Translations under genes and position numbers: made by a program
DNA from: Psychroflexus sediminis
GTDB lineage: Bacteria; Bacteroidota; Bacteroidia; Flavobacteriales; Flavobacteriaceae
DNA length: 64,000 bases
Assembly (NCBI RefSeq): GCF_900099815.1
Contig: NZ_FNCW01000005.1
Coordinates: 186,001 to 250,000, forward strand
Direction of reading: 5' to 3'
Shown: piece by piece, positions 13,421 through 19,269 of the stretch
How the letters are laid out: each line of letters begins with the position of its first letter
How positions within the stretch are numbered: the stretch's first letter is position 1
Notes under the pieces: model-generated
Database searches by the model: none
Told to the model about the DNA's origin: nothing
What the model saw: the letters and a program-made list of their open reading frames with translations, nothing else

Positions 13421-13660
13421 TTATGCTGTCGGTGCCCAGGAAGAACATAACATTCCGGGAGCCGCTTTGGTAGGATGTGCACAAGTTGAAGTGCCATGCT
13501 TTTCACAATTCGAACAGCTTCTTTCATTCTTAAGTTCTGCTTTCATATCAAATAAATCGCAGGTATATTTTTGAGACACCAAAACCTCATGCTTACTGCA
13601 GAACGTCCCTTCAATTAAATTTTTACAATTGCTGCAATTATTCGCGAATCTAATAGCCAT
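13421..13660 (-). CDS. Small cysteine-rich protein with a duplicated 4-Cys motif
   Basis: A 79-residue protein with eight cysteines at 9, 12, 21, 34 and 49, 52, 60, 72. They form two copies of one spacing: C-x2-C-x8-C-x12-C and C-x2-C-x7-C-x11-C. Each third Cys has a nearby histidine (CSKH and CAH). Both copies share the CSNC-K/E core. This looks like an internal duplication of a zinc-ribbon or rubredoxin-like knuckle; the sequence does not say which metal is bound. There is no signal peptide, so it is cytoplasmic. It has its own terminator. I do not recognise a named family. Small Cys-rich proteins like this are frequent as uncharacterised genes in flavobacteria. Confidence 0.75.
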   Translation of the reverse strand: MAIRFANNCSNCKNLIEGTFCSKHEVLVSQKYTCDLFDMKAELKNERSCSNCEKHGTSTCAHPTKAAPGMLCSSWAPTA

Positions 13661-13775
13661 ATGATTAAGTTTTAAAGATTATTTCAATTTTTTTACCAAT
13701 ATAAAGAGAAGCAAAAGTAATTCTGTTAAAAATTGAGTAAATCCCTATAATACATTATTAGACTGATTAAAAATA

Positions 13776-13807
13776 AAAAGCACCTGTTTATCTAAACAGG
13801 TGCTTTT
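13776..13807 (-). terminator. Terminator of the thrS-infC-rpmI-rplT operon
   Basis: A 15-bp inverted repeat (13776-13790 with 13793-13807), with core GCACCTGTTTA and an outer A/T run, just beyond the rplT stop codon. Confidence 0.85.
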
Positions 13808-13830
13808 CAATTGCGATAATAAGTTAGAAT

Positions 13831-14175
13831 TTATTTGACTTTGTCGACTACGGCTTTAAAAGCTTCTGGATTGTTCATAGCTAAATCCGCAAGGACTTTT
13901 CTATTCAATTCGATGTTGTGAGCTTTCACTTTTCCCATAAACTGAGAATAGGATAAACCATGTAATCTCGCAGCTGCATTAATTCTTATGATCCAAAGTG
14001 ACCTGAAATTTCTTTTCTTGGTCTTGCGGTCTCTGTAAGCATATAACATTGCTTTTTCGACTGCATTTTTGGCTACTGTCCAAACGTTTTTACGACGTCC
14101 GAAATAACCTTTAGCTTGCTTCATTATTTTTTTACGTCTGGCTCTGGAAGCGACAGAATTTGTTGATCTTGGCAT
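13831..14175 (-). CDS. rplT: 50S ribosomal protein L20 (bL20)
   Basis: A 114-residue basic protein that binds 23S rRNA early in 50S assembly. [20 protein letters not shown] and [15 protein letters not shown] match the L20 N-terminal extension. [20 protein letters not shown] is the conserved globular core. Length is normal for the family. It is the last gene of thrS-infC-rpmI-rplT, the same order as in many bacteria. In Escherichia coli L20 represses this operon by binding its leader. I see no such structured leader here; rpmI and rplT are separated by 82 bases. Confidence 0.97.
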
Positions 14176-14257
14176 ATTTTAAAGTTTTTTGTAGCAGGCA
14201 GTTACGAGTAACATTTTATGAGCCTAACTCCATGGATTAATAATTAACCTTGTTTGC

Positions 14258-14455
14258 TTATTTTAAGCGTAATTGAGTTTTGATGCTGTGCTCATCGGCT
14301 TTGTCTACTAGACCGCTATGAGTTAGCTTCAATTTTCTCTTTTTTGACTTTTTGGTCAAAATGTGACTTTTGAATGCATGTTTACGCTTTATTTTACCTG
14401 TTCCGGTAAGTTTGAAACGCTTTTTAGCACTCGACTTGGTTTTCATTTTAGGCAT
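14258..14455 (-). CDS. rpmI: 50S ribosomal protein L35 (bL35)
   Basis: A 65-residue basic ribosomal protein. The start is the ATG at 14453-14455 ([20 protein letters not shown]), which matches the family N-terminus exactly; a longer in-frame reading from 14503 would overlap infC and adds non-conserved residues. [20 protein letters not shown] completes the family signature. The gene lies 25 bases after the infC stop and is cotranscribed with it. Confidence 0.97.
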
Positions 14456-14480
14456 CTGAATGTATTTAGGATTATCGCAA

Positions 14481-15038
14481 TTATTTTTTGGAAACCGGAG
14501 CAAGAATCATAATCATTCTTTTACCCTCCAATTTTGGCATCTGCTCTACTTTAGCTATATCTTCTAGATCCTGAGCTAATCTTAAAAGCAAGATCTGCCC
14601 TTTATCTTTAAAGACTATAGAACGCCCTTTAAAGAAGACAAAAGCTTTTAGCTTGGCACCATCTTTAAGAAACTTCTCTGCATTTTTCTTTTTGAATTCG
14701 TAATCATGGTCATCTGTATTGGGACCAAAACGAATTTCTTTAACCACGACCTGAGTCGTTTTTTGTTTGAGCTGTTTTTCTCTCTTTTTCTGTTCGTACA
14801 AGAATTTCTTGTAATCCATAACTTTACAAACAGGAGGATCTGCCTTAGGAGATATCTCTACTAAATCCAGCTCCTGTTCTTCGGCCATGGCCAAAGCTTC
14901 TTTGAGTGAATAAATATCTACTTTAACATTCTCACCAACGACACGAACCTTTGGAGCTCTTATCTTCTCGTTGATCTTGTGAGGGTTTTCTTTAATCTGC
15001 CTCGGGGCCTGTCTTGATTTTTTTCTACGTATTGCTAT
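14481..15038 (-). CDS. infC: Translation initiation factor IF-3, with a non-AUG (AUA) start codon
   Basis: IF-3 binds the 30S subunit and rejects wrong start codons. The C-terminal domain ([20 protein letters not shown]) and the linker ([24 protein letters not shown]) are clear. The N-terminal domain ([18 protein letters not shown], then DIYSLKEAL) is also present and in frame, but no ATG, GTG or TTG occurs before it. The first standard start codons are TTG at 14894 and ATG at 14888, which would delete the N-terminal domain. Alignment with family starts of the MAIRR type points to ATA at 15036-15038 (reads [14 protein letters not shown]), giving 185 residues. A second ATA lies two codons upstream. 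E. coli infC uses AUU and is self-regulated through it. thrS ends 18 bases upstream. Confidence 0.9.
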
Positions 15039-15055
15039 GGCTATCTATTTTTTAA

Positions 15056-17002
15056 TTAAACTTCAAATTTATATACTTCTTTATCGGTTTCGACTTGTAA
15101 GATCTTGGCAAAACTTTCTATGGGCATTTCTCCCAGATCATCTCCCCCATGCTTTCTTACGGAAACGGTTTCGTTTTCAACTTCCGCTTCCCCTATGATC
15201 AGCATATAAGGAATTTTATTCATCTCAGCTTCACGGATTTTCTTACCCATGGTTTCACCTCGATTGTCGAATATGGCGCGAATTTCGTGTTTTTTCAGTA
15301 AACTTAAAACTTTTTTAGAATAATTTTCATATTTCTCACTGATTGATAGGATAATAGCTTGTTCTGGCATTAACCATAAAGGGAAATTCCCTCCTGTATG
15401 TTCAAGCAAAATCGCTATAAAGCGTTCTAAGCTGCCAAATGGCGCTCTATGGATCATCACTGGTCTGTGCATTTCATTGTCACTTCCCTTGTATTCCAGT
15501 TCAAATCGCTCCGGAAGATTATAATCCACCTGGATAGTTCCCAGCTGCCATTGTCTCCCCAAGGCATCTTTGACCATAAAATCCAGTTTTGGTCCGTAGA
15601 AAGCAGCTTCGCCGGTTTCTACTTTATAATTAAGCCCTTTTTCTTCGGCTGCATTTAAAATGGCCGCTTCTGCTTTTGTCCAGTTTTCATCGGAACCGAT
15701 ATATTTTGAAGGATTTTCAGGATCTCTCAACGAAACCTGAGCTGTAAAGTTTTCGAAGCCTAAGGCACCAAATACATACAGAACCAAATCGATTACTTTT
15801 TTGAATTCTTCATCCAGCTGTTCAGGCATGCAGAAAATATGGGCATCATCCTGGGTAAAACCTCTAACTCTGGTCAGTCCATGAAGCTCTCCACTTTGCT
15901 CATAACGGTAGACCGTACCAAATTCTGCATAACGCTGTGGCAAATCCCGGTAACTCCAGGCCTGTGAATTGAAAATCTCACAGTGATGTGGACAATTCAT
16001 CGGTTTTAAAAGGTACTCTTCTCCATCCTGAGGTGTTTTGATAGGCTGGAAACTATCCTCTCCATATTTTTGATAATGTCCAGAAGTCATATATAATTCT
16101 TTCTGACCAATATGCGGAGAAACCACGGGCTGATAGCCTGCTGCTTCCTGAGCGTCTTTCATAAATTTCTCGAGACGGTCTCTAAGCGCCGCTCCTTTTG
16201 GCAACCAAAGCGGCAGACCCTGCCCCACCTTCTGAGAAAATGTAAATAATTTTAATTCTTTCCCCAGTTTTCTATGATCGCGTTTTTTGGCTTCTTCAAG
16301 CAGCGCGAGATACTCCTTTAATTCTTTTTGTTTAGGAAATGATATTCCATAAATCCGGGTCAACTGTGGATTATTCTCATCACCTCTCCAGTAGGCTCCA
16401 GCGATATTCATCAGCTTTACAGCCTTTATAAAACCTGTGTTTGGAATATGTCCGCCTCTGCATAAATCAGTAAAGTCATCATGATCACAAAATGTAATCG
16501 TGCCCTCTTCAAGATTCTCTATCAACTCAACTTTAAAAGGGTTGTTTTTGGATTTGTAATACTCTAAAGCTTCAGATTTCGTCACTTCACGCATTTCAAA
16601 ATCATGCTTGCCTCTGGCGAGCTCCAACATCTTAGCTTCAATCTTAGGAAAATCATTTTCAGAAATAAGCTCCCCGTTAAGATCCACATCATAATAAAAT
16701 CCATTTTCAATAGAGGGTCCAATGGTGAGATGAACATCCGGATATAATTTTAAGAGCGCTTGCGCCATCAGGTGCGAGGTGGAGTGCCAAAAAGCCTGCT
16801 TGCCCTCGTCATCATTGAAAGTCAATAGCACCAAATTACCATCGTCTTGAAGAGGAGTCGTGGTTTCAACAATAGTATCATTAAATTTTGCTGAAATCAC
16901 ATTTCTGGCTAAGCCTGAACTTATGCTTAAAGCAACCTGAAGAGGCGTTGTGCCCTTCTCATATTGCTTTACACTTCCGTCTGGTAAGGTAATATTGATC
17001 AT
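15056..17002 (-). CDS. thrS: Threonyl-tRNA synthetase
   Basis: Charges tRNA-Thr. The 648-residue chain has a TGS domain (residues 1-60, [19 protein letters not shown]), the editing domain with [17 protein letters not shown] (the zinc-type HxxxH), the class II catalytic core, and a C-terminal anticodon-binding domain ([16 protein letters not shown]). The catalytic zinc ligands are retained: Cys in [10 protein letters not shown], His in the DDAHIFC region and His in [13 protein letters not shown]. It is the first gene of the operon with infC, rpmI and rplT and has a textbook promoter ten bases upstream of its transcript start codon. Confidence 0.97.
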
Positions 17003-17018
17003 TGATATTGATTTTGAG

Positions 17019-17048
17019 CAAAGATACTAGGTTAATATTTCTTTGCAA
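17019..17048 (-). promoter_or_regulatory. Promoter of the thrS-infC-rpmI-rplT operon
   Basis: Minus-strand TTG at 17046-17048, a 19-base spacer, then TATCTTTG at 17019-17026. Transcription should begin near 17012, leaving a leader of about ten bases, too short for a T-box or an attenuator. Confidence 0.7.
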
Positions 17049-17202
17049 CATGAAATCCTGTTTGTTTGGGGTTTTGTTGTCTTAAATATTTGATTAGTTA
17101 AAGCCTGAATAAGCCTTCTAAAAAGTTAGGATTTGTCAGCTTGAGCCTCTGGAAATTTTAGAAGTCTATTTAATATAAAGTGACGCTTTATACATGTTTT
17201 AA

Positions 17203-17299
17203 CATCGAGCCTTTCGGCTTCGCTCAGGACAAGCTAAGTCGAGATGTATTTGGTTCTCGACTCCGCCTGCCTGCGTTCCGCTTAGGAAGGCAGGCTCGA
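17203..17299. repeat. Dispersed palindromic repeat, compound copy
   Basis: The right half (17269-17299, 31 bases) is identical to the reverse complement of 40696-40726. The left half (17222-17243, GCTCAGGACAAGCTAAGTCG) is a close relative of 33835-33856. CATCGAGCCT at 17203-17212 also recurs at 40694-40703. So this intergenic element is a mosaic of two repeat families found elsewhere in the window. It contains no reading frame. The rest of the gap 17003-17376 holds only the thrS promoter and the htpG terminator. Confidence 0.75.
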
Positions 17300-17322
17300 A
17301 GTGTCAGTTCTAAATATCATAA

Positions 17323-17359
17323 AAACACAAAACCACTTCGCTAAAGTGGTTTTGTGTTT
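17323..17359 (-). terminator. Intrinsic terminator of htpG
   Basis: A 16-bp perfect stem (17323-17338 with 17344-17359), 5-base loop, with a T run on the minus strand, 17 bases beyond the htpG stop. Confidence 0.88.
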
Positions 17360-17376
17360 CGAAATAATGCTTTTGC

Positions 17377-19269
17377 TTATTTGATCAGTTTGAAACTTCT
17401 TTCTACAAAATTGGTGAGCTCCTCACCTTTTAAGAGATTTTGAGATAGCAACGCTAAATCTAAAGTTTGCTTGATCAGCGTTTCTCTTTTGGAATCTTCT
17501 TTTGCTTTCAGAATTTTAGAAATCAATGGATTGTTGGTATTGACAACCAAATTATACATCTCTGGCATATTGCCCATACCAAACATTCCTCCCCCACCGG
17601 TTTGCTGCATCTCTTTCATTCGACGCATAAATTCCGGCTGAGTAATCATCACAGGAGCTGTATCAGAATCTAAAGCTTCGAGTTGCACGCTGTATTTTTC
17701 CTTAGGTACAACCGTTTCAAAACTAGTTTTGACCGTTTCTTTTTCTTCATCAGAAAGTTTAGAAACCTGCTCAGATTCTTTTTTGATCAAGTTTTCAACA
17801 TGATCGCTGTCTACTCTCACGAAAGAGACCTTTTGCTCGTTTTCCTGCTCCAGTTTTTGAATCAAGTGAGACACAATTGGGGAATCTAAAAGCAATACTT
17901 TATAGCCTTTTGCTTCTGCTCTTTTGATATAACTGTGTTGCTGATCTTTATTGGAAGCATATAAAACTACCAGCTTCCCGTCCTTATCGGTCTGCAGATC
18001 CGTTATTTCATTTTTAAGTTCATCAAAAGTGAAATACGTATTGTTTGTGGTTGGATACAATGCAAATTTTTGAGCCTTTTCAAAAAATTTATCTTCAGAC
18101 AACATACCGTATTCAATCACCACCTTGATATCATTCCACTTCTTCTCGAAATCTTCTCTGTTGTCGTTGAAAAGCGACTTTAGTTTATCTGCTACCTTTC
18201 TGGTGATATAACTTGAAATCTTCTTCACAGCAGAATCTGCCTGTAAGTAAGATCTAGACACGTTGAGCGGAATATCCGGAGAATCGATAACACCTTTCAG
18301 CATAGTCAAAAATTCTGGCACAATCCCTTCTACATTATCGGTTACAAATACCTGATTCTGATAAAGCTGAATTTTATCTTTCTGAATCGACAAGTCATTT
18401 GTCAATTTTGGAAAATATAAAATACCGGTCAAGTTGAACGGATAATCTACATTCAAATGAATGTGAAATAAAGGCTCTTCAAATTGAGTTGGATATAACT
18501 CTCTGTAAAATGAATTATAATCTTTCTCCTCAAGTTCAGTTGGCTGTTTAGTCCACGCCGGATCTGGATTGTTGATTATATTATCAACCTTTATCTTTTT
18601 TGGTTCCTCATCTTCCTTGGCATCCTCCGCTTTTGGAAGCTCTTTTTCTTTAGTTCCGAATTTGATAGGAACTGGCATAAACTTGTTATACTTAACCAAA
18701 AGCTCGTTGATTCTGTGCTCTTCAAGAAACTCTTTCTCATCATCATTGATGTGAAGAATAATTTCAGTTCCTCTTTCAGTTTTATCGCCTTCTTCTAAAG
18801 TGAACTGTGTCGTTCCTTCGCAGGTCCAGTGCGCAGCAGGCTCGTCTTTCCAGGATTTAGTCTTGATTTCAACTTTGTTAGCGACCATAAATGCCGAATA
18901 AAACCCGAGTCCGAAGTGACCGATGATTCCTGTATCCTTAGCATCAGAATCTTTGTATTTTTCCAAAAACTCTTCAGCGCCGGAAAAAGCAACTTCATTG
19001 ATGTATTTTTCAACTTCTTCCTTTGTCATCCCCACACCTTCATCAATTATATGAAGAGTTTGGTTGTCTTTATCTATTTTAACTTCAATCTTAGGTTGAC
19101 CTACGTCAATTTTAGCTTCACCTATTCTCACCAGGTGATTCATTTTAAGAGTCGCATCGGTTGCGTTGGAAATAAGTTCTCTTAAAAAAATCTCGTGATC
19201 GCTGTAAAGAAATTTTTTGATCAGTGGAAAAATGTTTTCCACCGAAACATTAATATTACCTGTAGCCAT
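17377..19269 (-). CDS. htpG: HSP90-family molecular chaperone HtpG
   Basis: A 630-residue ATP-dependent chaperone. The N-terminal GHKL ATPase has FLRELISNATDATLK (the catalytic Glu and Asn), IIDEGVGMT and GHFGLGFYSAFMVA. The middle domain contains the conserved NVSRSYLQAD block. The C-terminal dimerisation domain ends with ERSFKLIK. A charged segment (KEKELPKAEDAKEDEEPKKI, about residues 215-235) links the first two domains, as in many Bacteroidota members. It is monocistronic and divergent from the tetR gene. No CIRCE-like element is visible upstream; a weak inverted repeat at 19302-19325 lies between them. Confidence 0.96.
   Translation of the reverse strand: MATGNINVSVENIFPLIKKFLYSDHEIFLRELISNATDATLKMNHLVRIGEAKIDVGQPKIEVKIDKDNQTLHIIDEGVGMTKEEVEKYINEVAFSGAEEFLEKYKDSDAKDTGIIGHFGLGFYSAFMVANKVEIKTKSWKDEPAAHWTCEGTTQFTLEEGDKTERGTEIILHINDDEKEFLEEHRINELLVKYNKFMPVPIKFGTKEKELPKAEDAKEDEEPKKIKVDNIINNPDPAWTKQPTELEEKDYNSFYRELYPTQFEEPLFHIHLNVDYPFNLTGILYFPKLTNDLSIQKDKIQLYQNQVFVTDNVEGIVPEFLTMLKGVIDSPDIPLNVSRSYLQADSAVKKISSYITRKVADKLKSLFNDNREDFEKKWNDIKVVIEYGMLSEDKFFEKAQKFALYPTTNNTYFTFDELKNEITDLQTDKDGKLVVLYASNKDQQHSYIKRAEAKGYKVLLLDSPIVSHLIQKLEQENEQKVSFVRVDSDHVENLIKKESEQVSKLSDEEKETVKTSFETVVPKEKYSVQLEALDSDTAPVMITQPEFMRRMKEMQQTGGGGMFGMGNMPEMYNLVVNTNNPLISKILKAKEDSKRETLIKQTLDLALLSQNLLKGEELTNFVERSFKLIK

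What the first reader, a model, noticed from the sequence alone, without database searches (positions are those of the whole stretch)
14481..15038. infC appears to start on AUA
The conserved IF-3 N-terminal domain is encoded in frame, but the reading frame has no ATG, GTG or TTG before it. The first are TTG 14894 and ATG 14888, inside the conserved domain. The residues that align with family starts of the MAIRR type are read from ATA at 15036-15038; a second ATA lies two codons upstream. In E. coli infC uses AUU, and IF-3 represses itself because it rejects non-AUG starts. An AUA start would be a parallel solution in a phylum that does not use Shine-Dalgarno pairing.
Basis: partly seen in the sequence, partly recalled or inferred. 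Interest (0 to 1): 0.55.

Follow-up and report, generated by a model that had tools for sequence, protein, structure and literature searches.

The report
IF-3 gene starting on AUA
[quoted passage not shown] coli with AUU.

Summary
The infC frame (15044-14481, minus strand) has no ATG, GTG or TTG until 14894, inside the IF3_N domain. Comparison makes ATA 15038-15036 the start: in 119 distinct family-set loci that share the motif this codon is ATA in 118, ATC in 1. Six other near-invariant isoleucine columns use ATA in only 9-32 rows. The likely mechanism, inferred and not tested, is IF3 autorepression through a near-cognate start, as in E. coli (AUU).

An AUA start of infC is published for S. 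aureus.

A new lead: in 38 of 129 other Bacteroidia loci (22 of 60 families), infC has GGAGG 4-9 nt before AUA, AUC or AUU; the neighbour rpmI has it in 0 of 105. This class is reported not to use Shine-Dalgarno pairing generally. Non-canonical starts may have hidden infC from earlier screens. The window's family has no such sequence (0 of 124) but an A-rich leader.

The parts
14481..15038 (-). infC coding sequence from the AUA start, 185 codons and a stop; translation initiation factor IF-3
   Evidence: Pfam IF3_N and IF3_C; the only IF3_N match in the genome
15036..15038 (-). AUA start codon
   Evidence: ATA 118, ATC 1 of 119 distinct family-set loci; other invariant Ile columns use mixed codons
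15039..15061 (-). infC leader: GTTTAATTAAAA (15061-15050) overlapping the thrS stop, A at -12 and -13 (15050, 15051), GCC directly before the AUA; no Shine-Dalgarno sequence
   Evidence: A at -13 and at -12 in 118 of 119, G at -3 in 117, C at -1 in 114; duplex energy -1.5 kcal/mol
15056..17002 (-). thrS, threonyl-tRNA synthetase, ends 17 nt before the AUA
   Evidence: thrS upstream in 119 of 119 family-set loci, gap 12-108 nt
14258..14455 (-). rpmI, ribosomal protein bL35 (start ATG 14455, a second ATG at 14446)
   Evidence: Pfam Ribosomal_L35p
13831..14175 (-). rplT, ribosomal protein bL20
   Evidence: Pfam Ribosomal_L20

Best explanation
infC starts on AUA at 15038-15036, read by the ordinary initiator tRNA (anticodon CAU) with a third-position mismatch. 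AUA is a near-cognate codon of the class that IF3 rejects during initiation. In this family the weak codon is served without a Shine-Dalgarno sequence, by an A-rich leader (A at -12 and -13) just behind the thrS stop. Shown here: position, identity and conservation of the codon, and the conserved context. Inferred: decoding by fMet-tRNA, rejection by IF3, and autorepression.
For: ATA in 118 of 119 distinct motif-bearing family-set loci, never ATG, GTG or TTG; six other near-invariant Ile columns use ATA in only 9, 21, 32, 13, 26 and 26 rows. No canonical codon before the domain in 121 of 123. The place is boxed in: an in-frame stop lies 1 codon before GYC-ATA's ATA block in 40 of 119 loci. When the codon does change in relatives it is often to another near-cognate: ATC, ATT, CTG. 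A match to the anticodon arm GGGCTCATAACCC, typical of initiator tRNA (motif recalled), is in the own genome once. IF3 represses starts other than ATG, GTG, TTG, and infC has such starts in E. coli, Streptomyces, Listeria and S. aureus (PMC5472188, PMC13068326, PMC13009471, passages). The protein aligns with solved IF-3 chains over nearly its full length.
Against: No expression, ribosome-profiling or N-terminal data were available, so start and feedback are not shown by experiment. Position -3 is G, not the A reported as favourable in F. johnsoniae. 4 genomes placed in the same genus lack the ATA-GCA motif. In other Bacteroidia many loci are assigned canonical starts (TTG 26, ATG 19, GTG 10 of 129), so feedback by start codon cannot be needed everywhere. 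The 80 named loci were picked with a query that includes the N-terminus.
Confidence: 0.72

Rival explanations
1. AUA is the start, but it only holds IF-3 at a low constant level, or works through coupling to thrS termination, without feedback by IF3.
For: thrS ends 12-108 nt upstream in 119 of 119 loci; weak starts lower expression by themselves (AUA or AUU about 10% of AUG in S. aureus reporters in poor medium, PMC13009471, passages).
Against: The gap to thrS varies widely and in all three phases; the gene that keeps the weak start encodes the factor that senses weak starts.
Confidence: 0.22
2. Translation starts at a downstream canonical codon (TTG 14894 or ATG 14888), giving a shortened IF-3.
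For: These are the first canonical codons in frame.
Against: They lie inside IF3_N; TTG is present in 18 and ATG in 17 of 119 relatives at those columns, and the first in-frame canonical codon lies anywhere from 13 to 98 codons after the ATA.
Confidence: 0.02
3. One of the neighbouring ATA codons (15044 or 15032) is the start.
For: Both are ATA in the window.
Against: The place of 15044 is TAA or TGA in 40 of 119 relatives; that of 15032 is TTA in 9 and ATT in 21.
Confidence: 0.03
4. A sequencing or assembly error removed an ATG.
For: The window genome is a draft in 36 contigs.
Against: 118 of 119 distinct loci show ATA at the same place.
Confidence: 0.01

Closest known systems
E. coli infC, AUU start with IF3 autoregulation (PMC5472188, which cites Butler 1986/1987 and Sacerdot 1996; passages)
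   Same: A near-cognate start on the IF-3 gene.
   Different: AUU with a Shine-Dalgarno sequence (that sequence is recalled) against AUA without one; feedback shown in E. coli, only inferred here.
Staphylococcus aureus infC, AUA start (PMC13009471, passages)
   Same: The same start codon on the same gene; autoregulation is called likely there too.
   Different: S. aureus uses an extended Shine-Dalgarno motif at that site; the window has none.
Streptomyces infC (ATC; PMC5472188) and Listeria infC (ATT, experimentally confirmed; PMC13068326); passages
   Same: Near-cognate starts of infC.
   Different: Other codons, other phyla.
rpsU of Bacteroidia, strong Shine-Dalgarno sequence and bS21 autoregulation (PMC9976891, passages)
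   Same: A translation gene of this class that keeps a strong Shine-Dalgarno sequence, as infC does in other families.
   Different: rpsU starts were ATG in the loci looked at; the window's infC has no such sequence; rpsU reached -8 kcal/mol in only 1 of 14 genomes whose infC has GGAGG.

Membership tests
IF-3 (infC product) | IF3_N and IF3_C domains over their cut-offs | tested here: met
   105.3 bits (cut-off 26.9) and 112.1 bits (cut-off 34.8)
IF-3 (infC product) | gene order thrS-infC-rpmI-rplT | tested here: met
   thrS upstream in 119 of 119 family-set loci
infC genes with a near-cognate start (E. coli type) | no canonical codon available and a conserved near-cognate codon at the start | tested here: met
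infC genes with a near-cognate start (E. coli type) | IF3 represses its own translation in vivo | not testable with these tools
   needs reporters and controlled IF3 dose
infC genes with a near-cognate start (E. coli type) | changing the start to AUG abolishes the control | not testable with these tools
   needs a mutant
Shine-Dalgarno-bearing genes of Bacteroidia (rpsU type) | strong Shine-Dalgarno sequence before the start | tested here: not met
   0 of 124 family-set loci, window -1.5 kcal/mol; but present in 38 of 129 other Bacteroidia loci
Shine-Dalgarno-bearing genes of Bacteroidia (rpsU type) | translation rises when bS21 is missing | not testable with these tools
   needs reporters in bS21-depleted cells

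The most novel reading that the evidence does not exclude
In Bacteroidia infC is a hidden Shine-Dalgarno gene. In many families its near-cognate start is served by GGAGG, which ordinary Bacteroidia ribosomes cannot read because the anti-Shine-Dalgarno tail is tucked away. IF-3 synthesis would then depend both on scarcity of IF3 and on ribosomes with a free tail (for example lacking bS21 or bS18), joining factor supply to ribosome make-up. Flavobacteriaceae dropped the Shine-Dalgarno half and kept AUA with an A-rich leader.
Probability: 0.3. Interest if true: 0.75.

Novelty: new variant of a known kind. Interest (0 to 1): 0.52.

Why it matters
It extends the classic IF3 feedback loop to bacteria that mostly start translation without Shine-Dalgarno pairing, with Flavobacterium johnsoniae as a ready model in which start-codon checking by IF3 can be studied apart from Shine-Dalgarno strength. 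Gene finders that allow only ATG, GTG and TTG must misplace infC 5' ends wherever no such codon precedes the domain. The GGAGG kept before AUA, AUC or AUU in other Bacteroidia families would add infC to the limited list of genes there reported to carry a strong Shine-Dalgarno sequence (rpsU, rpsR and, in certain Bacteroidia, some other ribosomal genes; PMC9976891, passages). CUG as the infC start in two sister families is a further variant that my searches did not show in print.

Tried and rejected
Considered and rejected: a downstream canonical start, a thrS fusion or frameshift, a sequencing error, and the neighbouring ATA codons. RNA structure: mean pairing around the start is lower than mid-gene (0.33 for -20..+20 against 0.50; 119 loci), no sign of a dedicated hairpin; no alignment-based fold was run. 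Rfam on 13500-17500: 7 matches, all under their gathering scores. The thrS-distance part failed through a wrong program option and was redone. A first bS21 finder was too strict and was redone.

Results against or beside my reading. In other Bacteroidia a strong Shine-Dalgarno sequence goes with a near-cognate start (45 of 49 with it, 29 of 80 without; Fisher p 1.2e-10), but this is not corrected for kinship, the start rule leans on the sequence in 38 of those loci, and the tree-based pair test had only 6 supported pairs and gave median p = 1: I do not claim the association. The first rpmI control often used the second ATG of rpmI; it was redone with the upstream ATG, and only that is relied on. 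The 16S 3' end was not found in the draft genome with my pattern, so this species' anti-Shine-Dalgarno was not read. rpsU of the window's genome has no strong Shine-Dalgarno sequence, which speaks against a simple bS21 link in this species. For family f6 the start rule picks CTG, so '24 of 24 CTG' is by construction; the independent support is that 24 of 26 f6 loci have such a CTG, the other 2 having ATG, while seven near-invariant Leu columns of the same genes use mixed codons.

Rows dropped. Identical sequences were collapsed (352 loci to 343); one more row had no assigned start (351 of 352). L015 (open frame of 96 aa; no 5' end in frame) and L006, L010, L012, L016 (no ATA-GCA motif) are not in the 119. 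L012 was labelled ATA by a fallback rule although it reads ATT AGA AGA AGA like the other three. L203, L253, L290 and L291 were taken out of the Shine-Dalgarno-linked set before because the codon lay in coding sequence or the case was doubtful (40 of 129 other Bacteroidia loci before; 38 after).

Full report
What is there. On the minus strand thrS ends with TAA at 15058-15056. The infC frame follows a TAG at 15047-15045 and reads ATA GCC ATA GCA ATA CGT AGA AAA. The protein carries IF3_N and IF3_C and is the only IF3_N match in the genome; rpmI and rplT follow. No ATG, GTG or TTG occurs in frame before TTG 14894 and ATG 14888, which lie inside IF3_N.

Which codon starts. In all 352 loci were read, 343 distinct. 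'Family set' means the loci of the window's own family code plus those 80 named loci, a few of which are named only as Bacteroidia or Flavobacteriales. Of its 133 loci read, 128 share a start motif (codon, GCN, Ile/Leu, Arg/Lys); 119 of these are distinct, with ATA in 118 and ATC in 1. The named loci were chosen by likeness to a query that includes the N-terminus, which could favour the motif. The distinct loci found through the Pfam profile instead give 46 ATA, 1 ATC and 4 without the motif, of 51. Those 4 (L006, L010, L012, L016) read ATT AGA AGA AGA near the corresponding place; L015 has a broken frame.

Held as a codon, not as an amino acid. Six other columns of the same genes are isoleucine in at least 118 of 119 rows; they use ATA in 9, 21, 32, 13, 26 and 26 rows. 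In the rest of infC, Ile codons are ATT 738, ATA 367, ATC 318. The codon two before the start is TAA or TGA in 40 of 119 rows; the codon two after varies ATA 88, ATT 21, TTA 9, ATC 1. The canonical codons inside the domain are not conserved. thrS lies upstream in 119 of 119 with a gap of 12-108 nt in all three phases, so no fusion or fixed frameshift explains the gene.

Context. A stands at -13 and at -12 in 118 of 119 rows each, G at -3 in 117, C at -1 in 114. A at -3, -6, -12 and -13 is reported as favourable in F. johnsoniae (PMC6847099 and PMC9976891, passages); the -3 A is missing here. TTTAAY upstream occurs in 48 of 61 loci with a thrS gap of 23 nt or more and in 53 of 58 with a shorter gap, so it is not kept only as thrS coding sequence. 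None of 123 family-set leaders reaches -8 kcal/mol with the anti-Shine-Dalgarno tail; the window's value is -1.5.

Phylum view. By rule-based assignment, other Flavobacteriales (61 loci) have CTG 26, ATA 15, ATC 15, ATG 3, ATT 2. Other Bacteroidia (129) have ATA 46, TTG 26, ATG 19, ATC 16, ATT 12, GTG 10. Other classes (29) have ATC 20, TTG 4, ATT 3, ATA 2. Part of these rest on weak rules ('near?', 'can', 'nearR'). Free of start rules, no canonical codon precedes the domain in 121 of 123, 42 of 61, 48 of 129 and 19 of 29 loci of the four groups. On an IF3 tree of 244 rows (192 with a state; family set thinned to every fifth row) the codon changes at least 39 times, the near-cognate/canonical class at least 16 times and strong Shine-Dalgarno at least 20 times. 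This fits drift among near-cognates with repeated moves between classes; direction cannot be told.

The Shine-Dalgarno lead. In other Bacteroidia 40 of 129 distinct loci have GGAGG 4-9 nt before an in-frame start-type codon; in all 40 it is ATA (27), ATC (7) or ATT (6), although ATG, GTG, TTG and CTG were allowed. Two doubtful loci dropped, 38 remain, in 22 of 60 families. Three Flavobacteriales loci (families f12, f14) have it too. By duplex energy of -8 or lower, 49 of 129 infC leaders qualify, against 8 of 129 windows further upstream and 3 of 105 rpmI starts; by the GGAGG rule rpmI has 0 of 105, and in the genomes with the linked sequence rpmI qualifies by energy in 0 of 31. rplT qualifies in 0 of 23. 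rpsU qualifies in 1 of 16 sampled genomes, 14 of which have the infC sequence (starts set by rule). Outside Bacteroidia such sequences are ordinary (rpmI 16 of 29). The screens that I saw in passages covered ribosomal protein genes across Bacteroidia and whole genomes of Flavobacteriales (PMC9976891); that paper notes that wrong 5' ends of ribosomal protein genes can hide a sequence, and I infer the same for infC.

Mechanism. [quoted passage not shown] coli, Streptomyces, Listeria and S. aureus. The same loop is the most likely reason for the near-fixed AUA here. It is an inference; a low fixed level without feedback remains possible.

Novelty. Near-cognate infC starts are known, and AUA is known in S. 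aureus. My paper searches (open-licence PMC papers only, listings and passages) showed no statement on infC start codons in Bacteroidota; two Flavobacterium translation papers have no occurrence of 'infC' in their main text. Jha et al. 2021 was not held, and an arXiv survey of genes preferring non-AUG starts, seen only as a reference, may cover part of this. What seems new is the near-fixed AUA without Shine-Dalgarno pairing, the CUG variant, and the GGAGG kept in other families.

Noticed in passing
infC leaders of other Bacteroidia, e.g. L177, L182, L192, L193, L233, L236, L243, L245, L267, L268: GGAGG 4-9 nt before a near-cognate infC start in a class reported to lack general Shine-Dalgarno use.
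   Followed up: partly
families f2 and f6 of the order, e.g. L113, L136, L127, L151, L154, L276: infC appears to start on CTG.
   Followed up: partly
L006, L010, L012, L016: Genomes placed in the window's genus whose infC lacks ATA-GCA and reads ATT AGA AGA AGA instead, a possible switch to AUU.
   Followed up: no
window 15049-15061 and the same place in relatives: Conserved GTTTAAYTAAAA-like leader just behind or across the thrS stop, present also where it is not thrS coding sequence (48 of 61).
   Followed up: partly
L015 (genome G019): The IF3_N match lies in an open frame of only 96 aa in a single-contig genome: a broken infC or a sequence error.
   Followed up: no
genomes G060, G314, G398, G447, G487: No IF3_N match although listed at 98-100% complete.
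   Followed up: no
genome G404 (L197 and C65): Two IF3_N matches in one genome, one of them (L197) with a short N-terminus.
   Followed up: no
L354 and L355-L370: rpsU of the window's genome and of 15 of 16 other genomes has no strong Shine-Dalgarno sequence by my measure, although strong ones are reported as characteristic of rpsU.
   Followed up: partly
window 13737-13857: Matches to one Rhizobiales sRNA family (Atu_C9) on both strands, below its gathering score, at the 3' end of rplT; perhaps a terminator-like inverted repeat.
   Followed up: no
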